DNA of 64,000 nucleotides from Burkholderia sp. USMB20. GTDB taxonomy: Bacteria > Pseudomonadota > Gammaproteobacteria > Burkholderiales > Burkholderiaceae. Position numbers and translations under genes: made by a program. Within the stretch, counting starts at the first letter, position 1. Each line of letters begins with the position of its first letter. Positions 39,901 to 56,604 of this stretch are shown here, one piece after another. The stretch covers positions 124,001 through 188,000 of the forward strand of contig NZ_JTAN02000005.1 in NCBI RefSeq assembly GCF_000949135.2, read 5' to 3'. A model generated the notes under the pieces. That model was given only the letters and a program-made list of their open reading frames with translations. It was not told the origin of the DNA and made no database searches.

Positions 39901-40563
39901 ATGCGCGTACTGCTCGTCGAGGACGATCCGCTGATCGGCAGCGGGCTCGAACAGGGCCTCAAACAGGAAGGCTTCGCGGTCGACTGGGTCAAGGACGGCG
40001 ACGCCGCGACGCTCGCGCTGCGCTCGACCGGCTACGGCCTGCTGCTGCTCGACCTCGGGCTGCCGAACCGCGACGGCCTGTCGGTGCTCGCGTCGCTGCG
40101 CCGCCGCGACGAAACCCTGCCCGCGATCATCATCACCGCGCGCGACGGCGTGCCGGACCGCATCGCCGGCCTCGACAGCGGTGCCGACGACTACCTCGTC
40201 AAGCCGTTCGTGCTCGAGGAACTGCTCGCCCGCATTCGCGCGGTCAACCGCCGCCATGCGGGGCGCGCGCAGACGACGCTCGCGATCGGCCCGCTGCGGC
40301 TCGATCCGGTCAAGCACCTGGTCTGGCTCAACGACGAAGAAGTCACGCTGTCGCCGAAGGAGTTCGTGCTGCTGCACGAACTGATGCGCGACCCCGGCGC
40401 CGTGATCTCGCGCGAACAGTTCGAGGAACGGCTGTACAGCTGGGGCGAGGAAATCGAGAGCAACGCGGTGCAGGTGCACATCCACAACCTGCGCAAGAAG
40501 CTCGGCCACGACATGATCCGCACGGTGCGCGGCGTCGGCTACCGGATCGGTGACGCCGCATGA
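39901..40563 (+). CDS. qseB: QseB/PmrA-type response regulator (OmpR family)
   Basis: 220 residues from ATG 39901. Receiver domain with acidic pocket EDD (residues 7-9), phosphoacceptor D51 (LLLLDLGLPN) and K102-type lysine in DDYLVKPF, followed by an OmpR winged helix (about 125-218: VTLSPKEFVLLHELM, SNAVQVHIHNLRKKLG). The sequence is QseB/PmrA-like. The stop overlaps the kinase ATG, so the pair is coupled. Functionally it should sense envelope stress or metal/signal changes through its kinase; the ligand is unknown. Confidence 0.92.
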   Translation: MRVLLVEDDPLIGSGLEQGLKQEGFAVDWVKDGDAATLALRSTGYGLLLLDLGLPNRDGLSVLASLRRRDETLPAIIITARDGVPDRIAGLDSGADDYLVKPFVLEELLARIRAVNRRHAGRAQTTLAIGPLRLDPVKHLVWLNDEEVTLSPKEFVLLHELMRDPGAVISREQFEERLYSWGEEIESNAVQVHIHNLRKKLGHDMIRTVRGVGYRIGDAA

Positions 40564-41936
40564 CGAGTCTGCAACACGCGATCGCGCGCTGGCGCAGCGC
40601 ATCGCTGCGGCGGCGCCTGTTGACGTGGCTGCTGCCGGCCGCGTGCGTGATCGGGCTGGTCGCAAGCGCGGGCACCTACTGGGGCGCGCTGCGCGAACTC
40701 GACGATCTCCTCGACGACCAGATGCGCAGCATGTCGAAGCAGATCGTCGTCGGCCCGAACGGCGAACTGTCGTTCAGCAACCATCGCGACGGCAAGCACG
40801 AATTCGAGGCCGGTGACCCCGACGCCGTGCTGCTGCAGGTCTGGCGCAACGGCACGCTGGTGTATTCGACCGATCGCAAGTCCGCGCTGCCGCCGCCCGC
40901 GCAGACGGGCATCGGCAGCGTCGACGTCGGCGGCCAGCCGTGGCGCACCTACGTGACCGAACGCGGCGGCACGACGATCCGGCTCGCGCAGGCGCGCCAC
41001 GCGCGCTGGGAAGCGATCGCGGGCATCGCGGTGCACCTGCTGTGGCCGGTGTTCTCGATGCTGCCGGTGCTCGCGATCGGGCTGTGGTTCGGCATCGGCG
41101 CGGGGCTGCGGCCGCTGCGCACGATCGCGGCCGGCCTGAAGCGCAGGAATGCGAACAATCTCGAGCCGGTCGACGTCGCGTCGATGCCGAACGAAGTCCG
41201 CCCGCTCGCCGAAGCGATCAACGACCTGCTCGCGCGGCTCGACCGTTCGTTCACGCTGCAGCGGCACTTCATCGCCGATGCCGCGCACGAATTGCGCACG
41301 CCGATCATGGGGCTGTCGATCCAGTCGCAATTGCTGCGGCGCGCGTCGACGGCCGACGAACGCGAGCAGATCCTCGCGCAGATCCATGCCGGCACGACAC
41401 GCCTCGGCCACCTCGCAGAACAATTGCTGACGCTCGCGCGCCTCGAACCCGACGCGCAGGCGTCCGCCGCGGCCTCCGCGCCCGTCGATCTCGCCGCGCT
41501 GTGCCGCTCGGTGGTCGCCGATCGCACGCGCGTCGCGGATGCGCACCGCATCGACCTCGGCGCGATCGTGTCGTCGCCGGTGATGGCCGCCGGCAACATC
41601 GACACGTTGCGCGTGCTGCTGAACAACCTCGTCGACAACGCGATCCGCTACGCAGGCGCAGGCGCGCGCGTCGACGTGTCCGCGCGTCTCGATGGCGCGA
41701 CGCCCGTGCTCGAAGTCGCCGACGACGGCCCCGGCATTCCGGAAGCCGAGCGCACGGACGTGTGGGAACGCTTCTATCGCGGCGAAGGCGCGCAGGCGGT
41801 CACGTCGTCGGGCAGCGGGCTCGGGCTGTCGATCGTCAAGCGGATCGCCGAACAGCATCGCGCAACCGTCGCGCTCGGCACGACGCAAGGCGGGCGTGGG
41901 CTGACCGTGACGGTCCGCTTTCCGGCGCCGGCCTGA
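40560..41936 (+). CDS. qseC: QseC-type sensor histidine kinase
   Basis: 458 residues. Two transmembrane segments (about 20-42 and 158-180) flank a periplasmic sensor region. A HAMP-like linker follows, then the DHp helix with H243 in FIADAAHELRTPI, and the HATPase domain with N-box LLNNLVDNAIRYA and G-boxes VADDGPGIP and GSGLGLSIVKRIAEQH. The start overlaps the qseB stop by 4 bp (ATGA). The first ~83-bp repeat of the array begins 18 bp after its stop. Confidence 0.92.
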   Translation: MTSLQHAIARWRSASLRRRLLTWLLPAACVIGLVASAGTYWGALRELDDLLDDQMRSMSKQIVVGPNGELSFSNHRDGKHEFEAGDPDAVLLQVWRNGTLVYSTDRKSALPPPAQTGIGSVDVGGQPWRTYVTERGGTTIRLAQARHARWEAIAGIAVHLLWPVFSMLPVLAIGLWFGIGAGLRPLRTIAAGLKRRNANNLEPVDVASMPNEVRPLAEAINDLLARLDRSFTLQRHFIADAAHELRTPIMGLSIQSQLLRRASTADEREQILAQIHAGTTRLGHLAEQLLTLARLEPDAQASAAASAPVDLAALCRSVVADRTRVADAHRIDLGAIVSSPVMAAGNIDTLRVLLNNLVDNAIRYAGAGARVDVSARLDGATPVLEVADDGPGIPEAERTDVWERFYRGEGAQAVTSSGSGLGLSIVKRIAEQHRATVALGTTQGGRGLTVTVRFPAPA

Positions 41937-41953
41937 CACACGCCCGACGGGCC

Positions 41954-42036
41954 GCTTTTCCACAGATTGTGTTGGCAAGCTTGTGGACAACCGGCCGCTA
42001 ATGGCAGCAAGCCATTGATCCGAAAGGGTTTGGCGC
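41954..42036 (+). repeat. 83-bp repeat R1 (DnaA-box-like inverted ends)
   Basis: Box 1 TTTTCCACA at 41956-41964, box 2 TTGTGGACA at 41981-41989, TTGATC at 42015-42020. It begins 18 bp after the kinase stop. Its box 2 is the only one ending in GACA rather than GATA. It also has AATGG and CCATT arms before TTGATC. Confidence 0.9.
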
Positions 42037-42148
42037 TCGTGCGCAGCGAATGCGCCAACCCGCGCCGAGCAGGCGCTCGCCTCGACGCGACATCGCGTAC
42101 CGATCCCTTCCCTCCGAGTCGTCGCCGCACTACTTGCAGGGGCGCCCA

Positions 42149-42291
42149 ATGCCACATTTCAAATCGATGGACCCGAACTTCCCGATCCGGCAACAGCTCG
42201 GCGTCGACGCGCAACCCGTCGTGCTCCTCAACGTCTTCACGGTGGATCCGGCAGACGAGGCGGTTTGCACGATGTGCCGCGCCGCGCGATC
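42149..42291 (+). pseudogene. Truncated N-terminal fragment of an antibiotic biosynthesis monooxygenase (ABM)-like gene
   Basis: ATG 42149 opens MPHFKSMDPNFPIRQQLGVD, and then QPVVLLNVFTVDPADEA, a pattern typical of the start of ABM-domain proteins (a strand followed by DPADE). After about residue 38 the similarity stops, and the frame runs through non-coding-looking sequence into repeat R2 at 42301. The C-terminal two thirds of the domain are absent. It looks like a broken gene whose 3' part was lost at or near the repeat. Confidence 0.5.
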
Positions 42292-42300
42292 GCCACGCGG

Positions 42301-42383
42301 ACTTCTCCACAGAAAATGTTGGCAAGCTTGTGGATATCCTGCGCACCGCAACGCTAAGCCGTTGATCCGACGGACTTTGGCAC
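42301..42383 (+). repeat. 83-bp repeat R2
   Basis: TTCTCCACA at 42303-42311, TTGTGGATA at 42328-42336, TTGATC at 42362-42367. Box 1 to box 2 is 25 bp and box 1 to TTGATC is 59 bp, as in R1. It directly follows the truncated ABM-like frame. Confidence 0.9.
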
Positions 42384-42493
42384 GCGTGATGCAGACGCGG
42401 CGCGCGCCGGGCCGTCACACGCGCCGGTTCGCCGCACTTCGCATCACGATGCCACGTCGATGCCCCAATGATGTGCGATGCGATCGTCGCAGC

Positions 42494-42576
42494 ACTTACC
42501 CACAGATTTTGTTGGCAAGCTTGTGGATATCCTGCGCACGCATCGGCTAACCCATTGATCGGCCAATGATTCATGC
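42494..42576 (+). repeat. 83-bp repeat R3
   Basis: TTACCCACA at 42496-42504, TTGTGGATA at 42521-42529, TTGATC at 42555-42560, with the same 25- and 59-bp offsets. It lies in the gap between R2 and the 66-aa membrane protein gene; that gap holds no supported gene. Confidence 0.9.
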
Positions 42577-42795
42577 GCCACGTCACCGTTGCGGCAGCAC
42601 GCGGTTCGCCCGCGCGCGCAGACGGACGATCCGGCGCAACAGCGGCACCCTGCCCGCCGCTTGACGCCCGCACCTGCCACGCGTCACGATCACACGAGCC
42701 GCACGCGCCACGCATCGCGAGACTTCACGCAGCGGCACCACGATGCCGGCCGTTGCGCCCGCATCGGACAACGACACATCATTCCGAGGAAGACC

Positions 42796-42996
42796 ATGGA
42801 ACACTTCACCGCAGGGCAGTTGATCGTCTCGCTCGTGCTCGTCGCGATCGTCGTCTATCCGTATGTCCGCATCGTTCGGCGTACCGGGCATTCAGGCTGG
42901 TGGATCCTGACGATGTTCGTCCCGGTCCTGAACTTCATCATGTTGTGGGTGTTCGCGTTCGCGCGCTGGCCCTCGGTCGACGATCGGCATGGCTGA
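42796..42996 (+). CDS. 66-aa membrane protein
   Basis: From ATG 42796 behind GAGGAAGA: MEHFTAGQLIVSLVLVAIVV. One strong helix (residues about 6-24), then a basic RIVRRTGHSGWW, then a second hydrophobic stretch (ILTMFVPVLNFIMLWVFAFA). The layout RTGHSGWWIL...PVLNFIMLWVFA resembles small DUF805/superinfection-immunity-style membrane proteins, but no family is certain. It is sandwiched between repeats R3 and R4, and R4 starts 12 bp after its stop. Confidence 0.65.
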   Translation: MEHFTAGQLIVSLVLVAIVVYPYVRIVRRTGHSGWWILTMFVPVLNFIMLWVFAFARWPSVDDRHG

Positions 42997-43007
42997 ACAT
43001 CGGGCGG

Positions 43008-43090
43008 GCTTGTCCACAGATTGTGTTGGCAAGCATGTGGATAGCCTGCGCATACCGCGATCAAGCGCTTGATCCGTAAGACTTTGTCCG
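43008..43090 (+). repeat. 83-bp repeat R4
   Basis: TTGTCCACA at 43010-43018, ATGTGGATA at 43035-43043, TTGATC at 43069-43074. Here the TTGATC is part of a 16-bp palindrome, GATCAAGCGCTTGATC (43059-43074). Begins 12 bp after the 66-aa gene. Confidence 0.9.
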
Positions 43091-43180
43091 CGCCGCTTCG
43101 AATCGGGCACGCGGCCACGCGATGTGCCGTTCACGCATCGTCGCGCGACGCGACGGACCGCATGTCGCGCGCGCCACGCC

Positions 43181-43263
43181 GCTTGTCCACAGATTGTGTT
43201 GGCAAGCGTGTGGATAGCCTGCGCATACCACGCACAAGCACTTGATCCGAAAGGTTTTGTCCG
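43181..43263 (+). repeat. 83-bp repeat R5
   Basis: TTGTCCACA at 43183-43191, GTGTGGATA at 43208-43216, TTGATC at 43242-43247. It is closest to R4 in sequence, including the segment after TTGATC, so the two probably duplicated recently. Confidence 0.9.
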
Positions 43264-43341
43264 TGCCGCTTCGAACCGGGCAGGCAAGCCTCACGCACGC
43301 CGGCGCCGCGCCCGCTGCGCGAGGAACGCGGCCGCGCGCGG

Positions 43342-43424
43342 GCTTGTCCACAATTTTTGTTGGCAAGGATGTGGATATCCTGAGCATGCGTGACCTAAGT
43401 CGTTGATCGCACAACGTTTCGACA
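43342..43424 (+). repeat. 83-bp repeat R6
   Basis: TTGTCCACA at 43344-43352, ATGTGGATA at 43369-43377, TTGATC at 43403-43408. It lies 93 bp from the 3' end of the beta-lactamase gene. No gene is supported between R4, R5 and R6. Confidence 0.9.
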
Positions 43425-43516
43425 TGCCGGTCACGACTGCGGCACCGCGTGCATTCATCGACACATCGCTTCATCGATCCGTGCGTTCATCGATGAACGC
43501 GCGCCGCGCCGCCCGC

Positions 43517-44410
43517 TCACGCGAACATCGCGACCGCGATGCGCGCGGCGGCCGCGATCACGTCGTCCTTCGCCTTCGCATCGGCACGCGCCTGCGTGTA
43601 ATACACGGCGAGCACGATCGGCGCACGCGACGGCGGCCAGATCACGCCCGCGTCGTTCGTCGTCCCGTAGTCGCCGGTGCCGGTCTTGTCGGCCACCTGC
43701 CACCCGGCCGGCACGCCCGCGCGAATCCGCTTGTCGCCGACCTTGTTGCCGCGCAGCCACGCGACGAGCTGCGCACGCTGCGCGGGCGGCAGCGCGTCGC
43801 CGAGCATGAGTACGCGCAGGCTCGCGGCCATCGCGGCCGGCGTCGTCGTGTCGCGCGGGTCGCCCGGCAACGCGGTGTTCAGTTCGGTCTCCCAGCGATC
43901 GAGCCGGAACGTGTCGTCGCCGATCGAACGTGCAAACGCGGTCACCGCCGACGGCCCGCCGATCAGCTTCATCGCCAGGTTCGCGGCCGAGTTGTCGCTG
44001 TACTGGATCGCCGCCTCGCACAACTCGGCGACGGTCATCCCGGTGCCGACATGCTTGCCCGACACCGGCGAGTAGTTCACGAGATCGGACTGCGCAACGT
44101 CCACGCGCTGCTGCAGCAGCCCCGGGCGCTCGACGCTCTGCGCGAGCACCGCCGCACCCAGCATTGCCTTGAACGTGCTGCAGAACGGGAAGCGCTCGTC
44201 CGCGCGATGCTGCACGCGCCGGCCGCCCGCGGTGTCGATCGCGCACACGCCGAGACGGCCGCCCGCCGCGCGCTCGAGCGCGGCAAACGACGTCGCGGAC
44301 GAAACGTCCTGCCCGGCAGCCGGCGGCGACGCGCACGCGCTGACGGTCAGGACGAGCGGCGCCGTCGCGGCAGCCAGCAGCAGGGTTCGACGTTGCGATG
44401 AGTAGGTCAT
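43517..44410 (-). CDS. penA: Class A beta-lactamase (PenA/PenB type)
   Basis: 297 residues from ATG 44410. The N terminus MTYSSQRRTLLLAAATAPLV has a twin-arginine-like RR and a hydrophobic core, ending in a lipobox-like VSAC. Active-site motifs are CSTFK (Ser70-Lys73, with Cys69), YSDNSA (SDN loop), RWETELN (Glu166 in the omega loop) and DKTGTG (KTG). These are the features of Burkholderia Pen enzymes, secreted to the periplasm, hydrolysing penicillins and some cephalosporins. It is divergent from a LysR gene, as penA and penR are. Confidence 0.95.
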   Translation of the reverse strand: MTYSSQRRTLLLAAATAPLVLTVSACASPPAAGQDVSSATSFAALERAAGGRLGVCAIDTAGGRRVQHRADERFPFCSTFKAMLGAAVLAQSVERPGLLQQRVDVAQSDLVNYSPVSGKHVGTGMTVAELCEAAIQYSDNSAANLAMKLIGGPSAVTAFARSIGDDTFRLDRWETELNTALPGDPRDTTTPAAMAASLRVLMLGDALPPAQRAQLVAWLRGNKVGDKRIRAGVPAGWQVADKTGTGDYGTTNDAGVIWPPSRAPIVLAVYYTQARADAKAKDDVIAAAARIAVAMFA

Positions 44411-44479
44411 GGGGTGTCTCTCGTGGTGGAATGGATGCAGAACGGCCGGCCGGCGAGACAGCACTATCGTGACTTTACG

Positions 44480-44496
44480 GTTGCCTGACAAGCAAC
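44480..44496. promoter_or_regulatory. Inverted repeat in the bla/lysR divergent region
   Basis: GTTGC (44480-44484) and GCAAC (44492-44496) are perfect 5-bp arms with a 7-bp spacer, in the 116-bp gap between the beta-lactamase and the LysR gene. Size and position fit a LysR (T-N11-A) type operator for beta-lactam-dependent induction. Confidence 0.55.
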
Positions 44497-44526
44497 GATA
44501 ATTGAGCGCTGACAAAAGAAATTCTT

Positions 44527-45417
44527 ATGACGAAGCTCCGCCCTCATCTTCCGCTCAATGCGTTGCGCGCGTTCGAATCGTCGGCGCGCCACCTGAACTT
44601 CACGCGCGCCGGCCTCGAGCTGAGCGTGACCCAGGCGGCCGTGAGCCAGCAGGTGCGCTCGCTCGAGGAGCGGCTCGGCTGTGCGCTGTTCACCCGGTTG
44701 CCGCGCGGCCTCGGGCTCACCGACGAAGGGCGCGCGCTGTTGCCGGTGCTCAGCGACGCATTCAGCCGGATCGAAACCGTGCTCAAGCAGTTCGACGGCG
44801 GGCGCTTCCACGAAGTGCTGACGCTCGGCGCGGTCGGCACCTTTGCCATAGGCTGGCTAATGCCACGGCTGAAGCGCTTCGGCGACACGCACCCGTTCGT
44901 CGAGCTGCGGCTGCGGACCCACAACAACGTCGTCGACCTCGCGGCCGAGGGTCTCGATTTCGCGATCCGCTTCGGGGAAGGCAACTGGCCGGCGACGCGC
45001 AACGAGCGGCTGCTCGACGCCCCGCTCACCGCGCTGTGCGCGCCGGAGATCGCGCGGCGCCTCGCGCGGCCGGCCGATCTCGCGAACGAAACGCTGCTGC
45101 GCTCGTACCGCACCGACGAATGGCTCGGCTGGTTCGATGCCGCGCCGCTCGAACCGTGGGCGGTGAACGGGCCCGTGTTCGATTCGTCGCGGCTGATGGT
45201 CGAGGCCGCGATGCAGGGCGCCGGCATCGCGCTCGCGCCAGCCTGCATGTTCGCGCGCGAACTGCAGCTCGGCCTGCTCGCGCGGCCGTTCGACATCGAC
45301 GTGCGCGCGGGCGGCTACTGGCTCACGTCGCTGAAGTCGAAGCCGCTCTCGCCGGCGATGACGCTGTTTCGCGACTGGATCGTCGCGGAGGCGGCCGACA
45401 CTGCGCCGGTCGAATGA
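44527..45417 (+). CDS. penR: LysR-type regulator of the beta-lactamase (PenR/AmpR-like)
   Basis: 296 residues from ATG 44527. An N-terminal LysR winged HTH (residues about 1-65: LPLNALRAFESSARHLNFTRA, VTQAAVSQQVRSLEERLG) is followed by a substrate-binding effector domain (about 90-295). The order and divergence with a class A beta-lactamase match AmpR/PenR, which respond to peptidoglycan fragments to induce the enzyme. Repeat R7 begins 10 bp after its stop. Confidence 0.92.
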   Translation: MTKLRPHLPLNALRAFESSARHLNFTRAGLELSVTQAAVSQQVRSLEERLGCALFTRLPRGLGLTDEGRALLPVLSDAFSRIETVLKQFDGGRFHEVLTLGAVGTFAIGWLMPRLKRFGDTHPFVELRLRTHNNVVDLAAEGLDFAIRFGEGNWPATRNERLLDAPLTALCAPEIARRLARPADLANETLLRSYRTDEWLGWFDAAPLEPWAVNGPVFDSSRLMVEAAMQGAGIALAPACMFARELQLGLLARPFDIDVRAGGYWLTSLKSKPLSPAMTLFRDWIVAEAADTAPVE

Positions 45418-45426
45418 TGCGGCCCG

Positions 45427-45509
45427 GCTTGTCCACAGATTGTGTTGGCAAGGATGTGGATATCCTGGGTACCCGAGGCCTAACCCGTTGATCGCGCACG
45501 AATTATCGC
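45427..45509 (+). repeat. 83-bp repeat R7
   Basis: TTGTCCACA at 45429-45437, ATGTGGATA at 45454-45462, TTGATC at 45488-45493. Starts 10 bp downstream of the penR stop. Confidence 0.9.
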
Positions 45510-45603
45510 GCCGATGCACGCAGCGGGCAGCCCGTGCGCAAAGGCTTCGACGCACCGACCGCCGCGCGCCGGATCGTCAACCATCAGGAAGCAATCACGT
45601 CAG

Positions 45604-45686
45604 ACTTATCCACAGATTTTGTTGGCAAGCCTGTGGATATTCCACCAATGTGACGCGTAACATCCTGATACAAAAGGGGATTCAGT
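45604..45686 (+). repeat. 83-bp repeat R8 (carries a consensus DnaA box)
   Basis: TTATCCACA at 45606-45614, an exact consensus DnaA box, and CTGTGGATA at 45631-45639. The TTGATC position is degenerate (CTGATA). It is the most divergent copy in its 3' half. Confidence 0.88.
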
Positions 45687-45766
45687 AGATCGGGCCAGAC
45701 AGGTCAATGACGCGTCATCGTGTGCGGCCTCGCGGCGCCGCTTGCGCGGCCGGTCGGGGGCCGGCC

Positions 45767-45849
45767 GGTTCTCCACAGATTGTGTTGGCAAGCTTGTGGA
45801 TATCCTGCGCACCGGCCGGCTAACTCATTGAGCGCACGGGATTTTGTGC
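45767..45849 (+). repeat. 83-bp repeat R9
   Basis: TTCTCCACA at 45769-45777, TTGTGGATA at 45794-45802, TTGAGC at 45828-45833 in place of TTGATC. It is the last copy of the array. No supported gene lies between R7 and the 84-aa gene. Confidence 0.9.
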
Positions 45850-48648: not shown

Positions 48649-51600
48649 TCAGAACTTCCACAGGATGTTGCCGAGCACCGCGTTGTCGCGCACGCCGCTG
48701 CCGTACTGGCCGCTGAACGTGAGACCGAGCGTCAGGCGCTTCGTGATGGTCGCGTCGATGCCAGCTTCGAGCACCGCGCTGTCGCGCGCGATCGGCACGC
48801 CCGACACCTGGAACGACGTGCCGCCGTTCGCGAACGTGAACGCCGACGACGGCCGCACGTTGCCGAACGCATGCCGCCAGCCTACCGTCCCGCGCGCGGT
48901 GAACGTGCCGCTCGCGAGCATGCCGAGTTGAGAGGCCGCGCGCACGCCGAGCGTCGAGAAACCGACGTGGGTCGTCTGGCCGCCGGCCTGCAGCGCGGCC
49001 GCGCCGCCGGTTTCCGTATAGCCGTCGGTATGCAGGTTCACGTAGGCAAGACCCGCGAACGGTTCGAGCGCGACCGGCCCGACCGGCAGCGCATAGCCGA
49101 CTTCGCCGAACACCTGCTCGGAATGCGCGTTGTAGCCGGCCGAATCGTGATCGGAGAAGCCCGCGAAGCCCGGATTGCGGTCGCTGTTGATGCGGTACCA
49201 CGTGTACGACGCGCCGCCGCGCACGCCGAGCGCACCGTACTGCGCGCCGCCGTACAGCGACACGTAGTAGCTGTTGACCGACGCCGACGCGCTCTGGTCG
49301 TTGTCGAGCGAGCTGTGCGTGACGCCCGCGGCGAGACCGGCACGCCACTGGTCGTTGAGCGCCATGTCGGCACCGGCGATGAAGCCCGTCATGCTGCGGT
49401 TGATCGTCGACGCGTTGCCGTCGCCCGCGAGCCGGCTGCGGCCGCCGAACGCCTGCCCCCAGACCACCGGCTGATACGGCGTGCCGCCGTAGCAACCTGC
49501 GCGCGAACCGATCCGGCGTTCCGGCGGCAGCGTCGGATCGGTCGCGCCGGCCGTGTTGTCTCCGCACAGCGCGGCACCGCCCGACGACAGCGCGGCGAGC
49601 GGCCCCGCTCCGGGCGCGAGGCCCTGGCGCACGCGATCGGTCACGGCTTCGCGCACGTAGCGGCTGTCGAGCAGCAGCATGCTCTTCAGGCTCGCCTGCA
49701 GTTCCCCGTCGAGCATCCCGTAGGCGCGCCGCGCGGTGGCCGCATCGGTCGTCAGCACCGTGTCGTACAGCGGGTTGCCCGCGCCGAGCCCACCGATCGC
49801 GGTCGCGACCGCGCGCTGGTTCGGCGTCACCGCGACATCGGGCAGCGCCGTGCCGTTCGCGACGAGCTGCAGGTACACGTGGTCCGGATCGTAGCTGAGC
49901 GTCGGCATCAGGAACGCGTAGTTCGAATTCACCTGGCTGAACGTGCCCTGCACGCCCGACGATGCGCTGAGGATCGTGTACTTCGTGGTCGGCTGGTAGC
50001 TGGCCTGGTTCGCGAGCACCTGCACGGTGCCGCCGTTCAGCGTGGCCGTGCCGCCCGCCGCGATGCTGCCGGCCTGCTGCGGCGTCACCGCGACCTGCAG
50101 CGTCGAGCCCGGCTGGAACGTGACGTTGCCGGCCACGTTCAGCGCCGCGCCCGGCTGCGACGCGGCCGCGAACGCGCCGCCCTGCACGACGAGGCCACCA
50201 ACCGTGCCGGTGCCCGTCAGCGTCGCGCCGTTCTGCACGGTCACGGTCGACTGGCCGAGCGAACCGTCGACCGCGAGCGTACCCGCCGCGACGGTGGTCG
50301 GGCCGCTCAGCGTACTGGTACCGGTCAGCGTCAGTTGCCCGCTGCCGGCCTGGGTCAGCGAACCGGTGCCGGACAGCACGCTCGCGAGCGTCACGTTCGC
50401 GGACTGATTGAAGATCAGCGCGCCGTTGTCGACGATATTGCCGACCACGCTGCCCGACGTGCCGCCGTTGCCGAGCTGCAGCGTGCCGCCCGATGCGATC
50501 GTCGTGCCGCCCGTATAGGTGTTGCTGCCGGTCAGCGTCTGAATGCCGGTGCCCGCGACCGTCAGGCCGCCGGTGCCGCCGATCGTCCCGCCGAACGTGC
50601 TGGCGCCGCTGCCGCTCAGCGCCAGCGCATTCGCGCCGAGGTTCACGGTGCTGCCGGCCGCGCCCGACAGCGCGCCGATCGTCTGCGCACCCGCTGCGCC
50701 GCTCACGTCGAACGTCGCGCCCGCGCCGGCGAGGTTCACCGCGCCCGTCGACGCGAGGCTGCCGCCCGCGCCGAGCGCGAGCGTGCTGCCGCCGTTGATC
50801 GTCGTGCCGCCGGTATAGGTGTTCGCGCCCGTCAGCGTCTGCGTGCCGCTGCCCGCGAGCGTCACGCCGCCGCTGCCGCCGATCGTCCCGCCGAACGTGC
50901 TGGCGCCGCTACCGCTCAGCGCGAGGGCGTTCGCGCCGAGGTTTACGGTGCTGCCCGCCGCGCCCGACAGCGCGCCGATCGTCTGCGCGCCCGTTGCGCC
51001 GCTGAGATCGAACGTCGCACCCGCGCCGGCCAGATTCACCGCGCCGCTCGCCGCGAGGCTGCCGCCCGAACCAAGCGCGAGCGTGCTGCCGCCGTTGATC
51101 GTCGTGCCGCCGGTGTACGTGTTCGCCCCCGTCAGCGTCTGCGTGCCGGTGCCCGCGAGCGTCACGCCGCCGCTGCCGCCGATCGCGCCGCCGAACGTGC
51201 TGGCGCCGCTGCCGTTCAGCGTCAGCGCATTCGCGCCGAGGTTCACGTTCGTGCCCGCCGTGCCGGTCAGCGTGCCGAGCGTCTGCGCGCCTGCGGCGCC
51301 GCTCAGGTCGAACGTCGCGCCCGTGCCGGCCAGGTTCACCGTGCTGCCCGCGGCGAGGCTGCCGCCCGCGCCGAGCGCGAGCGTGCTGCCGCCGTTGATC
51401 GTCGTGCCGCCGGTGTACGTGTTCGCCCCCGTCAGCGTCTGCGTGCCGACGCCCGCGACCGTCACGCCGCCGCTGCCGCCGATCGTCCCGCCGAATGTGC
51501 CGGCGGTGCTGCCGTTCAGCGTCAGCGCGTTGCCGCCGAGGTTCACGCTCGTACCCGCCGCGCCGGTCAGCGTGCCGATCGTCTGCGCGCCCGTTGCGCC

Positions 51601-54600
51601 GCTCAGGTCGAACGTCGCGCCCGTGCCGGCCAGGTTCACCGCGCCGCTCGACGCAAGGCTGCCGCCCGCGCCCAGCGCCAGCGTGCCGGCGTTGATCGTC
51701 GTGCCGCCGGTGTACGTGTTCGCGCCCGTCAGCGTCTGCGTACCGGTGCCGGCCAGCGTCAGGCTGCCGGTGCCGCCGATCGCGCCGCCGAAGGTATTGC
51801 TGCCGTTGCCGCTCAGCGTCAGCGCAGTCGCGCCGAGATTCACGTTCGTGCCGGCCGCGCCGGTCAGCGCACCGATCGTCTGCGCACCGGACGCGCCGCC
51901 CAGGTCGAACGTCGCGCCCGCGCCGGCCAGATTCACCGTGCCGCTCGCCGCGAGGCTGCCGCCCGCGCCCAGCGCCAGCGTGCTGCCGCCGTTGATCGTC
52001 GTGCCGCCCGTATACGTGTTCGCGCCGGACAGCGTCTGCGTGCCGGTACCCGTGAGCGTCAGCCCGCCGGTGCCGCCGATCACGCCGCTGAACGTGCCGC
52101 TGGCCGTCCCGCCCAGTGTCAGCGCGTTGCCGCCGAGGCTCACGTTCGTGCCGGCCACGCCCGACAGCGCACCGAGCGTCTGCGCACCCGACGCATTGCT
52201 CAGGTCGAGCGTCGCGCCCGCGTTCGCGAGATTCATCGCGCCGGTCGATGCGAGGCTGCCGCCCGCGCCGATCGCCAGCGTGCCCGCGTTGATCGTCGTC
52301 CCGCCGGTGTAGGTGTTTGCGCCCGTCAGCGTGGTCGTCGCCGCGCCGTTCTTCACGAGCGCGCCCGTACCGGTAATCGCGCCGCCCAATCCGAGCGCGT
52401 TGCTGCCACCGAGCGTGAGCGTCGAGCCCGCGCCGAGACCGATTGCATTCGCCACCGTCAGGTTCGTGTTCGTATCGAGCGTCGCCGAACCGCCGACATT
52501 CAGCGCGCCGGTGCCGAGTGCCGCGGCGTTGCCGAGCACCAGTCCGCCACTGTTGAGGTTCGTGCCGCCCGAATAGGTGCTCGCGCCGTTCAGCGTCTGC
52601 GTGCCGGTGCCGGCCAGCGTCAGGCTGCCGGTGCCGCCGATCGCGCCGCTGTACGTGCCGCTGGCGGTTCCGCCGAGCGTCAGCGCGTTCGCGCCGAGAT
52701 TCACGTTCGTGCCGGCCAGGCCCGACAGCGCACCGAGCGTTTGCGCACCCGACGCATTGCTCAGGTCGAGCGTCGCGCCCGCGTTCGCGAGATTCATCGC
52801 GCCGGTCGCCGCCAGGCTGCCGCCCGCGCCGATCGCGAGCGTGCCCGCGTTGATCGTCGTGCCGCCGGTGTAGGTGTTCGTGCCCGTCAGCGTTACCGTC
52901 GCCGCGCCGTTCTTCACGAGGGCGCCCGTACCGGTAATCGCACCGGCCAATCCAAGCGCGTTGCTGCCGCCAAGCGTGAGCGCCGCACCCGTGCCGAGAT
53001 CGATCGCGTTGGCGACCGACAGGCTCGTATTCGTATCGAGCGTCGCCGCACCGCCGACGGTCAGCGCGCCGGTGCCGAGTGCCGCGGCGTTGCCGAGCAC
53101 CAGTCCGCCACTATTGAGGTTCGTGCCGCCCGAATAAGTGCTCGCGCCGTTCAGCGTCTGCGTGCCGGTGCCATCCAGCGTCAGGCTGCCGGTGCCGCCG
53201 ATTACGCCGCTGAACGTGCCGCTGGCCGTTCCGCCCAGCGTCAGCGCGTTCGCGCCGAGATTCACGTTCGTGCCCGCGACGCCCGACAGCGCGCCGAGCG
53301 TTTGCGCACCCGACGCATTGCTCAGGTCGAGCGCCGCGCCCGCGTTCGCGAGATTCATCGTGCCGGTCGCCGCAAGGCTGCCGCCCGCGCCGATCGCCAG
53401 CGTGCCGGCATTGATCGTCGTGCCGCCCGTGTAGGTGTTCGCGCCCGTCAGTGTCACCGTCGCCGCGCCGTTCTTCACGAGCGCGCCGGCGCCGGAAATC
53501 ACGCCGCCCAGCGCGAGCGCATTGCTGCCGCCGAGCGTGAGTGCCGTGGCCGTGCCGAGATCGATCGCGTTGGCGACCGACAGGCTCGTATTCGCATCGA
53601 GCGTCGCGGCACCGCCGACGGTCAGCGTGCCGGTGCCCAGCGCCGCGGCGTTGCCGAGCACGAGGGTACCGGCGTTCAGCGTCGTGCCGCCCGTGTAATT
53701 GTTCGCGCCGCTCAGCGTCAGCGCCGCCGCGCCGTTCTTCACGAGCCCGCCGCCGCCGGAGATCGTGCCGCCGAGCCCGAGATCGGTGCTGCCGCCCACC
53801 GTCAGCGTCGTGCCGGTGGCGACGTTGATGCCGTTCGCGAGCGACACGTTGGTGGTCGCATCGAGCGTCGACGAGCCGTTGACGTTCACCGCGCCGGAGC
53901 CCAGCGCCGTGTTGCTGCCGACGACGAGGTTGCCGCCGTTCAGGTTCGTGCCGCCGGAGTAGACGTTCGTGCCGGTCAGCGATTGCGTCCCGGGGCCCGA
54001 CAGCGTCACGCTGCCCGAGCCGCCGATCGTGCCCGCATAGGTCGCGTTGATGGTGCCGTTGAGCGTCAGCGAATTGCCGCCGAGGTCCACGTTCGTGCCG
54101 GCCGCTCCCGCCAGCGCTCCGATCGTCCGCGCGCCCGACGCGCCGCTCAGGTCGAACGTCGCGCCCGCGCCGGTCAGGTTCACCGTGCCGGTCGCCGCGA
54201 GGCTGCCGGCGCCGCTCAGTGCGAGCGTGCCGCTGTTGATCGTCGTGTCGCCCGTGTAGGTGTTCGCGGCCGTCAGCGTGGCCGTCGCGGCGCCGTTCTT
54301 CACGAGGCCGCCGTTTCCGCTGATCGTGCCGGACAGCCCGAGGCTGTTGCTGCCACCGAGCGTCAGCGTCGCGCTGTTGTCGAGATTGATCGCATTGTCG
54401 AGCGTGACGTTCGCGCTCGTGTCGAGCAACGCCGACGCATTGACGTTCACCGCGCCGGTGCCGAGCGCCCCGTTGTTGCCGACCACGAGGTTGCCGCCGT
54501 TCAGGTTCGTGCCGCCCGTATAGGTATTGGCACCCGACAGCGCCAGCGTGCCGCCGTCGTTCTTCGTCAGCGCGCCGCTGCCCGACACCGTGCCCGACAG

Positions 54601-55749
54601 CGTGAGCCCGGTCGCGCCCTGCACCGTCAGGCCGGTGCCGAGCGTCACGTTGTTCGACACGTTGAGCCCGGCCGTGCCCGCCTGCAGCGCGCCGCCGTTG
54701 GCCGTGATCGTGCCGGTGCCGAGCGACGCGTTGTCGTTGATGATCGCGACGCCGCCGCTCGACAGCGTCGCGTCCTGCACGGTCGACGCGCCGTTGATCG
54801 TCCAGTTGCCGCTCGCGACGTCGAGGTGATTGAAGTTGACGTAGTTGTTGATCGCGATCGTGCCGTTCGCGGAGGTGCCCTGCTGCAGGTTCAGCGTGTT
54901 GTTGCCGCCCGCGCCGCCGTCGACGATCCCCGTCGCCGCCACGTTGAGCGTGTTCGGGCCGACCGTGATGTTGAACGCGCCGCCGGTGCCGCCCGCCGCG
55001 TTGACCGACGAGCCCGTCACCGCGTTGAACGTGTTGGTGCTGTTCGCGCCCATCGACACGCTGCCGTTGATCGTGCCCGAGTTGGTGAACGTGTTGCCGC
55101 CCCCGGGCGTGCCGTTCGTGGCGAGCGACACGCGGCCGTTGATCGTGCCGCTGTTCGTCATGTTGACCGTGCCGCCGCCGTATGCGGCGACCACCGGCGC
55201 ATCCGCGCCGGACAGCGTCGCGCCGACCAGCGGGTTCGAACCGATCGTGCCGGTGTTGTTGATGGTCGACGTGCCGCCGGTGCCGTTCTGGACCGACAGC
55301 GCCATGCCGGTCACGCCGCTGATCGCGACCCCGGTCGAGCCGAGCATCGTGCCGTTGTTGGTGACGGTGGTATTGCTCGCCGACGCATTGCCGAGCACCG
55401 CGCCGCTCGACAGCACGCCGAGCCCCGAGCCGAGCGCGGACGGGTCGATCGTGCCGTTGTTGGTCAGCGTGTTGTTGTTGCCGGTCAGCGACATCGCGGT
55501 GCCGCCGACGCCCAGCAGCACGCCGACGCTCGCGCCAGGATTGACGGTGACGTTCAGGTTGTTGGCGCTGTTTGCATAGCTCGGCGCCAGCGGATTCGCG
55601 ACGCCCGTGCAGGTCACCGTGGTGCCTGCCGTGCTGCAGGTCGCGTACGCGGGGACGATGCCCGCGCCGGACAAGGCCAGGAAGACGCCCGTCGGCAACA
55701 GGAATTTCGGAAACGGCTCTCCGCTCTTCTTCGAATGCGCAATGTTCAT
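48649..55749 (-). CDS. Giant autotransporter with about 15 passenger-associated transport repeats
   Basis: 2,366 residues from ATG 55749, preferred over 55770 because GAGGGG lies just upstream. The N terminus MNIAHSKKSGEPFPKFLLP is followed by a hydrophobic segment up to VPAYA (signal peptide, near residue 36). The passenger (to about residue 1990) has about 15 repeats of a PATR-type unit, with hallmarks such as NTYTGGTTIN, LALGAGGSLA and TFDLSGA, each about 85-100 residues and highly similar to each other. The outer-membrane beta-domain starts near residue 2093 (VVWGQAFGG) and ends in ILWKF, the terminal Phe signal for the BAM complex. A surface adhesin or aggregation factor is the likely role. 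It is preceded by an AT-rich leader. Confidence 0.9.
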   Translation of the reverse strand: MNIAHSKKSGEPFPKFLLPTGVFLALSGAGIVPAYATCSTAGTTVTCTGVANPLAPSYANSANNLNVTVNPGASVGVLLGVGGTAMSLTGNNNTLTNNGTIDPSALGSGLGVLSSGAVLGNASASNTTVTNNGTMLGSTGVAISGVTGMALSVQNGTGGTSTINNTGTIGSNPLVGATLSGADAPVVAAYGGGTVNMTNSGTINGRVSLATNGTPGGGNTFTNSGTINGSVSMGANSTNTFNAVTGSSVNAAGGTGGAFNITVGPNTLNVAATGIVDGGAGGNNTLNLQQGTSANGTIAINNYVNFNHLDVASGNWTINGASTVQDATLSSGGVAIINDNASLGTGTITANGGALQAGTAGLNVSNNVTLGTGLTVQGATGLTLSGTVSGSGALTKNDGGTLALSGANTYTGGTNLNGGNLVVGNNGALGTGAVNVNASALLDTSANVTLDNAINLDNSATLTLGGSNSLGLSGTISGNGGLVKNGAATATLTAANTYTGDTTINSGTLALSGAGSLAATGTVNLTGAGATFDLSGASGARTIGALAGAAGTNVDLGGNSLTLNGTINATYAGTIGGSGSVTLSGPGTQSLTGTNVYSGGTNLNGGNLVVGSNTALGSGAVNVNGSSTLDATTNVSLANGINVATGTTLTVGGSTDLGLGGTISGGGGLVKNGAAALTLSGANNYTGGTTLNAGTLVLGNAAALGTGTLTVGGAATLDANTSLSVANAIDLGTATALTLGGSNALALGGVISGAGALVKNGAATVTLTGANTYTGGTTINAGTLAIGAGGSLAATGTMNLANAGAALDLSNASGAQTLGALSGVAGTNVNLGANALTLGGTASGTFSGVIGGTGSLTLDGTGTQTLNGASTYSGGTNLNSGGLVLGNAAALGTGALTVGGAATLDTNTSLSVANAIDLGTGAALTLGGSNALGLAGAITGTGALVKNGAATVTLTGTNTYTGGTTINAGTLAIGAGGSLAATGAMNLANAGATLDLSNASGAQTLGALSGLAGTNVNLGANALTLGGTASGTYSGAIGGTGSLTLAGTGTQTLNGASTYSGGTNLNSGGLVLGNAAALGTGALNVGGSATLDTNTNLTVANAIGLGAGSTLTLGGSNALGLGGAITGTGALVKNGAATTTLTGANTYTGGTTINAGTLAIGAGGSLASTGAMNLANAGATLDLSNASGAQTLGALSGVAGTNVSLGGNALTLGGTASGTFSGVIGGTGGLTLTGTGTQTLSGANTYTGGTTINGGSTLALGAGGSLAASGTVNLAGAGATFDLGGASGAQTIGALTGAAGTNVNLGATALTLSGNGSNTFGGAIGGTGSLTLAGTGTQTLTGANTYTGGTTINAGTLALGAGGSLASSGAVNLAGTGATFDLSGATGAQTIGTLTGAAGTSVNLGGNALTLNGSTAGTFGGTIGGSGGVTVAGVGTQTLTGANTYTGGTTINGGSTLALGAGGSLAAGSTVNLAGTGATFDLSGAAGAQTLGTLTGTAGTNVNLGANALTLNGSGASTFGGAIGGSGGVTLAGTGTQTLTGANTYTGGTTINGGSTLALGSGGSLAASGAVNLAGAGATFDLSGATGAQTIGALSGAAGSTVNLGANALALSGSGASTFGGTIGGSGGVTLAGSGTQTLTGANTYTGGTTINGGSTLALGAGGSLASTGAVNLAGAGATFDVSGAAGAQTIGALSGAAGSTVNLGANALALSGSGASTFGGTIGGTGGLTVAGTGIQTLTGSNTYTGGTTIASGGTLQLGNGGTSGSVVGNIVDNGALIFNQSANVTLASVLSGTGSLTQAGSGQLTLTGTSTLSGPTTVAAGTLAVDGSLGQSTVTVQNGATLTGTGTVGGLVVQGGAFAAASQPGAALNVAGNVTFQPGSTLQVAVTPQQAGSIAAGGTATLNGGTVQVLANQASYQPTTKYTILSASSGVQGTFSQVNSNYAFLMPTLSYDPDHVYLQLVANGTALPDVAVTPNQRAVATAIGGLGAGNPLYDTVLTTDAATARRAYGMLDGELQASLKSMLLLDSRYVREAVTDRVRQGLAPGAGPLAALSSGGAALCGDNTAGATDPTLPPERRIGSRAGCYGGTPYQPVVWGQAFGGRSRLAGDGNASTINRSMTGFIAGADMALNDQWRAGLAAGVTHSSLDNDQSASASVNSYYVSLYGGAQYGALGVRGGASYTWYRINSDRNPGFAGFSDHDSAGYNAHSEQVFGEVGYALPVGPVALEPFAGLAYVNLHTDGYTETGGAAALQAGGQTTHVGFSTLGVRAASQLGMLASGTFTARGTVGWRHAFGNVRPSSAFTFANGGTSFQVSGVPIARDSAVLEAGIDATITKRLTLGLTFSGQYGSGVRDNAVLGNILWKF
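50490..54540 (-). repeat. Nearly identical tandem coding repeats of the autotransporter passenger
   Basis: The DNA coding the passenger consists of successive units of about 264-300 bp, sharing long blocks around the codons for NTYTGGTTINGG, GAGGSLA and GAQTIGALSGAAG. Units near 50,520-51,700 are the most alike, suggesting recent duplication or gene conversion. Copy-number change by recombination is expected. Confidence 0.8.
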
Positions 55750-56604
55750 GCTTCCCCTCGTGCTCGGCATGGCCGGTGAATCGATCCGGCGGCGGCGGAA
55801 AATCCGGGACGCAAGCGTGCCCTCCGGCGGTCGCGGAACGACGTCGGTCTATTCGTGGATGAACTGCGGGTTAATCGATTCTCGTTTGCGAGTGCAAACT
55901 CAACCGGACGACATGATCGTGGCCCCTTGTTCTTATGCAGCGACTTTCTGGTTGATTTGATTACCGCCCTGCTTTTTGTCAGACAAGGCTATATCAAATA
56001 AACAGGGTTTTCCAGTCGATGTTTGGTTATCGGAGCGAGGTCGATGGAATACGTATTTTTTACTCGTTAGATTGCGTGAAACGACCGGATTAAAAGGGTC
56101 TTTCGGTCATTCCGTCATGCCAGGAAAAGTTACCTGTACCACGAGATCAGTAAAAACACTGATAATTCATACTAATCGCCGGCCGGATTTTCGCGACTCA
56201 ATTTAAATGATGACGGCGGCAGTCGGCGCAAATAATCCGAACCCATTTTATTTAAAGATTTGAAAGCATGGATTCTCAACACACTTGCAGAGTGCCTTCG
56301 CATTCGGCGCACATGATTCCGCCGCCTTGAAATGAAAAATGAAAGCCGCAAGGTCAATCGCCCCCCGGCCACGCGGCCCCGCTTGAAACGCAGGTTCAAA
56401 AGTGTCGGACTTCAGGAGAAGCGTGCCGCCGGCTTGCACGGCACGCGGCCCGGCATGCTGCCACGGCCGGCTCGCGCATGGCCAGGCACTGCGGTCGACA
56501 CGGCGTGTCGAGCGTGTCCGGAGCAGCCGGACGATGTTCGGCATGCCGGAGCTTCGGGGTTCGAAGGATGTTCAACGAACGTCGACGGGCTTGCCCGGCC
56601 GGCG
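55750..56604. promoter_or_regulatory. 855-bp leader of the autotransporter, AT-rich core
   Basis: Between about 55,870 and 56,420 base composition drops sharply from the GC-rich norm, with runs such as TATTTTTTACTCG and ATTTTATTTAAAG. No convincing gene was found on either strand. The region probably holds the promoter of the autotransporter and possibly sites for a silencing protein. It lies between the autotransporter start and the 3' end of the mreB-like gene. Confidence 0.5.

What the first reader, a model, noticed from the sequence alone, without database searches (positions are those of the whole stretch)
41954..45849. Nine copies of a rigid 83-bp repeat with DnaA-box-like inverted ends around the beta-lactamase genes
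Seen: each unit has TTNTCCACA (or close) then exactly 25 bp later nTGTGGATA, and in eight copies TTGATC or TTGAGC exactly 59 bp after box 1. All nine face the same way, and R8 contains a perfect DnaA consensus box TTATCCACA. The rigid spacing of boxes 25 bp apart means that the element is under selection as a unit rather than being a random repeat. Units lie 10-18 bp after the stop codons of three genes (kinase, 66-aa protein, penR). Inference: it could be a DnaA-titrating or DnaA-responsive element, a REP-like transcription element, or an RNA structure (the arms can pair in RNA). I do not know a name for it.
Basis: partly seen in the sequence, partly recalled or inferred. Interest (0 to 1): 0.78.

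Follow-up and report, generated by a model that had tools for sequence, protein, structure and literature searches.

The report
Tandem DnaA and IHF site array
Nine copies of a short non-coding DNA element, each combining binding-site patterns for the bacterial replication starter DnaA and the DNA-bending protein IHF, sit in one conserved place in Burkholderia genomes and look like a control station for DNA replication.

Summary
In detail: nine same-strand units at 41954-45849 and no other core match in the window. The array is a genus-wide locus. 64 of 65 genomes match the core, 48 of 65 with 8-10 copies on one strand, and the 65th has three diverged units at the same place. It does not depend on the beta-lactamase genes. 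Each unit has DnaA-type boxes at 0 (+), +14 (-, degenerate) and +26 (-). This is the box layout found at E. coli DARS1 and DARS2, and not found in the oriC and datA stretches examined. An IHF consensus follows at one fixed offset (strict form in 195 of 250 units, at no other offset). Like modules occur on chromosome 1 and in other Burkholderiales, including six-unit arrays in another family. All 35 modules or arrays that I could orient point against the replication fork, but one close pair on opposite strands (G1053) must break this rule. Best reading: a DARS-like DnaA/IHF control array. Reactivation rather than plain titration is inference. RNA, terminator and REP readings are not supported. 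I saw no description in the papers searched. Binding and function are untested.

The parts
41955..42031 (+). R1: DnaA box I 41956, box II 41970, box III 41982, IHF site 42008-42020 (1 mismatch)
42302..42378 (+). R2: DnaA box I 42303, box II 42317, box III 42329, IHF site 42355-42367 (1 mismatch)
42495..42571 (+). R3: DnaA box I 42496, box II 42510, box III 42522, IHF site 42548-42560 (1 mismatch)
43009..43085 (+). R4: DnaA box I 43010, box II 43024, box III 43036, IHF site 43062-43074 (1 mismatch)
43182..43258 (+). R5: DnaA box I 43183, box II 43197, box III 43209, IHF site 43235-43247 (1 mismatch)
43343..43419 (+). R6: DnaA box I 43344, box II 43358, box III 43370, IHF site 43396-43408 (1 mismatch)
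45428..45504 (+). R7: DnaA box I 45429-45437 (+), degenerate box II 45443-45451 (-), box III 45455-45463 (-), IHF site 45481-45493 (consensus read on - strand, 1 mismatch)
45605..45681 (+). R8: perfect DnaA box I 45606, box II 45620, box III 45632, IHF site 45658-45670 (1 mismatch, at another place than in R1-R7)
45768..45844 (+). R9: DnaA box I 45769, box II 45783, box III 45795, IHF-like site 45821-45833 (2 mismatches)
40560..41936 (+). Context: two-component histidine kinase gene ending just before R1 (not part of the element)
42796..42996 (+). Context: 66-aa DUF805-like protein between R3 and R4 (no match in some array loci)
43517..44410 (-). Context: beta-lactamase gene inside the array; no match in 7 of 32 loci compared, one of which (L070) is cut short
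44527..45417 (+). Context: LysR-type regulator gene inside the array; no match in 7 of 32 loci compared (L070 cut short), and only a weak 27% match on the other strand in L067

Best explanation
The nine units are tandem copies of a non-coding DnaA/IHF module and together form a replication-control locus, by homology on chromosome 2. In each unit two strong DnaA-type boxes face each other 26 bp apart, with a degenerate box between them at +14: the box I/II/III layout of the E. [quoted passage not shown] An IHF site lies at a fixed distance (+52 from box I), where IHF would bend the DNA and shape the DnaA complex. I infer that DnaA assembles head-to-head on each unit, helped by IHF, and that the array changes the amount or nucleotide state of DnaA, most likely by promoting release of ADP from DnaA as DARS does. 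Array dosage doubles when mid-arm of chromosome 2 is replicated. Shown: sequence, geometry, conservation, position, prevailing polarity. Inferred: binding by DnaA and IHF. Speculative: reactivation rather than titration.
For: Geometry: with the loose thresholds used on the E. coli stretches, the 0/+14/+26 layout is found at DARS1, at the DARS2 core and once more in the DARS2 region, and not in the oriC and datA stretches. With stricter thresholds it is found exactly 9 times in the window, all nine being the units. PMC5742627 (passages) states that boxes I-III have the same spacing in DARS1 and DARS2, with box I opposite to II and III. IHF: strict YAAnnnnTTGAT in 195 of 250 units at one offset and at no other within 150 bp; 213 of 250 have at most 1 mismatch to WATCAANNNNTTR, against 0.024% of sampled background positions. 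A T-run, as expected of an IHF A-tract, starts at position 75 in 159 of 250 and at 74 or 76-78 in 24; 67 have none. In the window's nine, 8 have 1 mismatch and R9 has 2. In elements of other genera picked without regard to IHF, 19 of 22 with a TGTTG box II have the IHF site (up to 2 mismatches) at the same offset or one base on, against 6 of 968 for other offsets. Six-unit arrays in a second family have a different middle, with a perfect IHF consensus in 6 of 6 units of G576. Conservation: 64 of 65 genomes. Independence of the inner genes. No covariation for an RNA stem. Polarity: 24 of 24 Burkholderiales rows and 15 of 15 oriented rows point against the fork (35 distinct, 4 shared).
Against: No binding or functional data. 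Box II is degenerate: 3 mismatches to TTATCCACA in all nine units, 4 mismatches and no ACA end in the G576 array, whereas in E. coli DARS1 and DARS2 it has 0; it may be a site for something else. In DARS2 the IHF and Fis sites lie in a separate regulatory region of about 400 bp (PMC5742627); here IHF is adjacent and Fis was not tested. Canonical box II elements (TGTGGANAA) in the sampled loci of other genera had no IHF site at that offset, 0 of 9, so the module is not simply a DARS core plus IHF; near-canonical boxes (such as TGTGGACAG) with the IHF site do occur in another family, but there the search pattern itself asked for IHF. The prevailing polarity is not shared by E. coli DARS1, and G1053 C6 has two modules about 200 bp apart on opposite strands, so at least one breaks it. 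Chromosome 2 of B. cenocepacia starts by a RepA/iteron system (PMC4948915, passages), so a local DnaA role is not obvious.
Confidence: 0.6

Rival explanations
1. Passive DnaA titration sink: the array only soaks up DnaA (18 near-consensus boxes in 3.9 kb) and IHF merely stabilises binding; nucleotide state is unchanged.
For: 18 of the 21 near-consensus DnaA boxes of the 64-kb window are inside the array. Copy number is kept high: 52 of 65 genomes have 7-10 copies on the main strand.
Against: A sink needs no fixed inverted geometry, no conserved middle box (close to 2 bits at most positions) and no IHF site at one rigid offset.
Confidence: 0.17
2. datA-like locus: DnaA and IHF assemble to hydrolyse DnaA-bound ATP and switch DnaA off.
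For: datA also combines DnaA boxes with one IHF site (PMC5742627, passages; an IHF consensus in the datA stretch).
Against: In datA the essential boxes share one direction and the IHF site lies between boxes. Here box I opposes II and III and the IHF site lies outside. The datA stretch shows no 0/+14/+26 geometry.
Confidence: 0.1
3. Polar replication-linked site other than DnaA control, such as a DnaA-box-based fork barrier or a segregation or termination mark, since nearly every copy points the same way relative to the fork.
For: 35 of 35 distinct oriented modules or arrays meet the incoming fork with their IHF end, by eye about nine distinct loci.
Against: Positions range from 0.29 to 0.93 of the arm, with the largest array at mid-arm; symmetric inversions about ori and ter preserve polarity by themselves; rows from one genus are homologous; the opposite-strand pair in G1053 breaks the rule.
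Confidence: 0.08
4. RNA-level element (hairpin, small RNA array or terminator).
For: The outer boxes are complementary and could pair; three units lie 10-18 bp after stop codons.
Against: No covariation in 250 units; 0 terminator-like sites and no promoter-like site at the units; no Rfam hit overlapping a unit; same orientation whether the neighbouring gene runs + or -.
Confidence: 0.03

Closest known systems
DARS1 and DARS2 (DnaA-reactivating sequences) of E. coli
   Same: Three DnaA-type boxes at offsets 0 (+), +14 (-), +26 (-); non-coding; away from the origin (E. coli 0.66 and 0.41 of the arm; here chromosome 2 array 0.40-0.56 and chromosome 1 array 0.75-0.83); IHF involved, as in DARS2.
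   Different: Box II degenerate; IHF site adjacent (+52) in each unit; tandem arrays, up to nine or ten units; on a secondary chromosome; prevailing polarity to the fork; no Fis site tested; activity unknown.
datA of E. coli
   Same: DnaA boxes plus IHF site in a non-coding locus.
   Different: datA essential boxes share one direction with IHF between boxes (PMC5742627, passages); no 0/+14/+26 geometry in the datA stretch.
crtS of Vibrio cholerae
   Same: A non-coding site that couples replication of two chromosomes; coupling is only a hypothesis for the array.
   Different: crtS lies on chromosome 1 and acts on the chromosome 2 initiator RctB (PMC11711613, abstract in listing); this array lies on chromosome 2 and carries DnaA-type boxes.
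Iteron cluster of Burkholderia cenocepacia chromosome 2
   Same: Repeats on the same chromosome.
   Different: 19-21 bp iterons at the origin, with a second cluster 140 kb away (PMC4948915, passages); this array is 566-900 kb from the origin region in nine genomes.

Membership tests
DARS | Core of three DnaA boxes, I opposite to II and III, with fixed spacing | tested here: met
   0/+14/+26 in 9 of 9 units, at DARS1 and at the DARS2 core; none in the oriC and datA stretches. Box II is degenerate.
DARS | Box II close to the DnaA consensus, as in both E. coli sites | tested here: not met
   3 mismatches in 9 of 9 units; E. coli DARS1 and DARS2 core have 0. In L086 two of three units have 2 mismatches.
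DARS | IHF site (DARS2) | tested here: met
   Consensus present at one offset: 213 of 250 units with at most 1 mismatch, 250 of 250 with at most 2. Its position differs from DARS2, and binding is untested.
DARS | Fis sites (DARS2) | not tested
   Not scanned.
DARS | Promotes ADP release from DnaA | not testable with these tools
   Needs purified proteins.
datA | Essential DnaA boxes in one direction with IHF site between boxes | tested here: not met
   Box I opposes II and III; IHF site outside (definition from PMC5742627).
oriC | At the origin, with an AT-rich unwinding region | tested here: not met
   566-900 kb from the chromosome 2 origin region in 9 genomes; G+C stays 0.59-0.74 in 250-bp steps across the locus.
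REP/BIME dispersed repeats | Many copies scattered over the genome | tested here: not met
   One cluster on one strand, with at most one stray 1-mismatch hit elsewhere, in the genomes whose places were listed (the list is cut after about G021).
Structured RNA | Compensatory changes in the stem | tested here: not met
   No clear excess pairing over independence at any of 14 tested pairs.

The most novel reading that the evidence does not exclude
Burkholderiales carry a new class of mostly polar, tandemly repeated DnaA-IHF control loci. In Burkholderia the nine-unit array on the second chromosome, which itself starts by RepA, makes replication of chromosome 2 feed back on the DnaA that starts chromosome 1: when the fork passes mid-arm the array dosage doubles, and the level of active DnaA changes. 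This would be a chromosome 2 to chromosome 1 link, the reverse direction of crtS in Vibrio cholerae.
Probability: 0.25. Interest if true: 0.92.

Novelty: new variant of a known kind. Interest (0 to 1): 0.8.

Why it matters
How bacteria with several chromosomes time their replication is, to my knowledge, understood in most detail for Vibrio cholerae. PMC4948915 says that a crtS-like link between chromosomes 1 and 2 of Burkholderia cenocepacia is worth exploring (passage). PMC4245941 states that the DARS2 core is conserved specifically among gamma-proteobacteria related to E. coli (passage), although the review PMC5742627 speaks of beta- or gamma-proteobacteria close to E. coli (passage). A conserved, multi-copy DnaA/IHF array on the second chromosome gives a concrete DNA site for testing replication coordination.

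Tried and rejected
RNA family or hairpin: Rfam gave four sub-threshold hits, none overlapping a unit; no covariation. Terminator and promoter scan: 0 terminators; the two promoter-like sites lie at 44463-44502, between the beta-lactamase and LysR genes, not at units. Link to beta-lactamase regulation: rejected because the array persists in loci without a match to those genes (only stretches of 20 kb or less were compared, so the genes may lie elsewhere in those genomes). Origin of chromosome 2: rejected by distance. The single site TTATCCACAATTTCTGTGGAAAACCTTGTGGAAAG was first taken for oriC2 itself; it is only origin-proximal. Plasmid-collection records (5 with a match, 4 of them Burkholderia) gave homologues but no gene annotation in the three that I opened. 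RPA-family initiator search did not locate the chromosome 2 origin (matches in 4 of 15 genomes, on other contigs), so the parS2 pattern was used. The idea that the 0/+14/+26 geometry is just an oriC feature was checked on six loci: the 9 flanking frames scanned hit lon, ppnN, lysE, a SbcC-like ATPase, a phosphate transporter family, priA (twice), hemE and a Mg-chelatase family, none dnaA.

Limits. The window's own genome is not held, so its place on chromosome 2 is by homology. Polarity rows were chosen because the origin could be placed; chromosome 2 of G023 and G029 was left out as the origin parS was ambiguous. One search took 13 of the 43 matching genomes (long contigs); 8 of its 23 modules, in 6 of 13 genomes, could not be oriented because dnaA was not at the contig start. 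G576 (1 row) and G409 (3 rows) occur in both calls. Rows of one genus are homologous; 'about nine distinct loci' is my count by eye. Against the rule: G1053 C6 has one module on each strand about 200 bp apart. The 250 units come from 31 of the 65 genus genomes plus the window. L070 shows one unit because the 20-kb stretch or an insertion cut the array; the sets of L054 and L064 each include one weak matrix hit (scores 30 and 24). One search covers only the 30 loci kept.
Full report
WHAT IS THERE. The window holds nine copies of one element on the + strand between 41955 and 45844, and no other match to the core with up to 3 mismatches (9 found, 0.13 expected). A weight-matrix scan of 31 related loci plus the window gave 250 units, all on one strand within each source in 32 of 32. 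Counted from the C that opens the family, the layout is: positions 2-10 TTNTCCACA; 16-25 TGTTGGCAAG; 28-35 TGTGGATA; 54-66 YAAnnnnTTGATC; and often a T-run near 75. Between these blocks the sequence varies more.

A CONSERVED LOCUS. The window's own genome is not held. In the nearest genome the nine units form one cluster on one strand. In the genus, 64 of 65 genomes match; 48 of 65 have 8-10 copies on the main strand, 52 have 7-10, the rest 0-6. The genome without a match, G018, has three diverged units between the same outer genes. The beta-lactamase and LysR genes are passengers: in L054, L055, L060, L064, L067 and L086 units lie between some of the same outer genes on both sides, but no beta-lactamase match was found in these stretches, and no LysR match save a weak one (27%, other strand) in L067; L056 has a beta-lactamase match without the LysR gene; L070 is cut short.

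DnaA-TYPE BOXES WITH DARS GEOMETRY. In the nine units box I (+, at 0) has 0-1 mismatch to TTATCCACA, box III (-, at +26) has 1, and a degenerate box II (-, at +14) has 3. The same arrangement was found at E. coli DARS1 (TTATCCACT, TTATCCACA, TAATACACA), at the DARS2 core and at a second place in the DARS2 region, and not in the oriC and datA stretches. PMC5742627 (passages) says that boxes I-III have equal spacing in both DARS sites, with box I opposite to the others, and that head-to-head contact of DnaA on boxes I and II is a prominent feature of DARS. The box labels on the E. coli sequence are mine. The caveat is box II: perfect in E. coli, degenerate here, without the ACA end in the G576 array. 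In L086 and L060 it drifts towards the consensus (TGTGGTCAA, 2 mismatches), and in another family near-canonical forms such as TGTGGACAG occur with the IHF site. This supports a DnaA relationship but does not prove it.

IHF SITE AT A RIGID OFFSET. PMC8682772 quotes the IHF consensus as TAAnnnnTTGATW (passage). The strict form YAAnnnnTTGAT occurs in 195 of 250 units, always at position 54 and at no other offset in 150 bp; 213 of 250 have at most one mismatch to WATCAANNNNTTR and 250 of 250 at most two, against 0.024% and 0.10% of sampled background positions. In the window, R1-R8 have one mismatch and R9 two. A less circular control: elements in other genera were found with a pattern that stops before the IHF site. 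Of 38 distinct elements in the 30 loci kept, 19 of 22 with a TGTTG middle have the IHF site (up to 2 mismatches) at the same offset or one base on, 0 of 9 with a canonical box II do, and 4 of 7 others do; other offsets give 6 of 968, 3 of 396 and 3 of 308.

MORE ARRAYS. A smaller array with another middle (TGTTGACAG, TGTTGAAGA, TGTTGAAAG) lies on the dnaA-bearing chromosome: three units in L126, L127, L128 and L129, one detected in L122, L123, L124 and L125. The order-level scan matched 63 of 300 genomes with up to 2 mismatches, with 0 in the reversed-pattern control; many are single sites with canonical box II and poor IHF match. In another family 43 of 145 genomes matched. In its genus g126, six of eight genomes have six matches in one cluster, G1085 has three plus two, and G1098 has one; in G576 all 6 units have a perfect IHF consensus. 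At class level 14 of 274 matched: the centre genome G001 and 13 single sites, 11 of these with canonical TGTGGATAA. The relaxed module scan gives 240 modules in L040-L070 and 0 in the reversed control.

POSITION AND POLARITY. The chromosome 2 origin was placed by a recalled parS2 pattern, which clusters about 1-3 kb from a conserved DnaA-box site. In nine genomes the array lies 566-900 kb away, at 0.40-0.56 of the arm; the chromosome 1 array lies at 0.75-0.83 in ten genomes; E. coli DARS2 is at 0.41, DARS1 at 0.66, datA at 0.20 (dnaA places). Synteny makes the agreement within the genus unsurprising. All 24 Burkholderiales rows and all 15 oriented rows point against the fork, so that the IHF end is copied first: 35 distinct rows, four being shared, and by eye about nine distinct loci. 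This is not absolute: G1053 C6 carries two modules about 200 bp apart on opposite strands, and 8 of 23 modules could not be oriented. E. coli DARS1 points the other way. I have no explanation for the polarity.

MECHANISM. Shown: rigid module, conservation, array form, position, prevailing polarity. Inferred from motif identity: DnaA and IHF bind. Inferred from geometry: DnaA sits head-to-head as on DARS. Speculative: the outcome is ADP release. Because B. cenocepacia chromosome 2 uses a RepA/iteron origin (PMC4948915, passages), a DnaA-control array there might act mainly on chromosome 1, which suggests a link between the two chromosomes.

LITERATURE. PMC4245941 (passage) limits the DARS2 core to gamma-proteobacteria related to E. 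coli; PMC5742627 speaks of beta- or gamma-proteobacteria close to E. coli. A search for DARS1 with DARS2 and betaproteobacteria gave 0 papers; DARS with Burkholderia and 'DnaA-reactivating' gave one, whose Burkholderia passages are unrelated. The listings (titles, abstract starts) of searches on intergenic repeats, small RNAs, DnaA titration, parS, DnaA boxes with IHF, DARS2, and penA with direct repeats show no description of these units. Most subscription papers and preprints are not covered, so novelty is provisional.

Noticed in passing
L087 4803, L088 4519, L089 6632, L090 5028 (about 2-3 kb from parS2 sites on chromosome 2): A site TTATCCACAATTTCTGTGGAAAACCTTGTGGAAAG with near-canonical box II and the same 0/+14/+26 geometry, close in sequence to E. 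coli DARS1, without the IHF site. Its core is seen in 12 of 17 genomes with listed places and close variants in 3 more; the lists of the other two (G011, G019) are cut.
   Followed up: partly
L147, L102, L144: Single DARS-geometry sites with canonical box II occur in other genomes beside priA (L147, L102) and lon (L144); they may be DARS1-type loci.
   Followed up: partly
L046 1611 and 12227 (G007): About 10.6 kb lies between the first and second unit of the array, a likely insertion.
   Followed up: no
G1053 C6 63187-63443: Two modules on opposite strands about 200 bp apart, an exception to the polarity seen elsewhere.
   Followed up: no
window 48649-55770 (-): A very long frame of 2373 aa with a 300-bp tandem repeat at 50497-52332, perhaps a large repetitive surface protein.
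   Followed up: no
for example G009 C2:2752029: Besides the origin-proximal parS2 sites, most of the 11 genomes with matches have one lone parS2 site roughly 1 Mb or more away.
   Followed up: no
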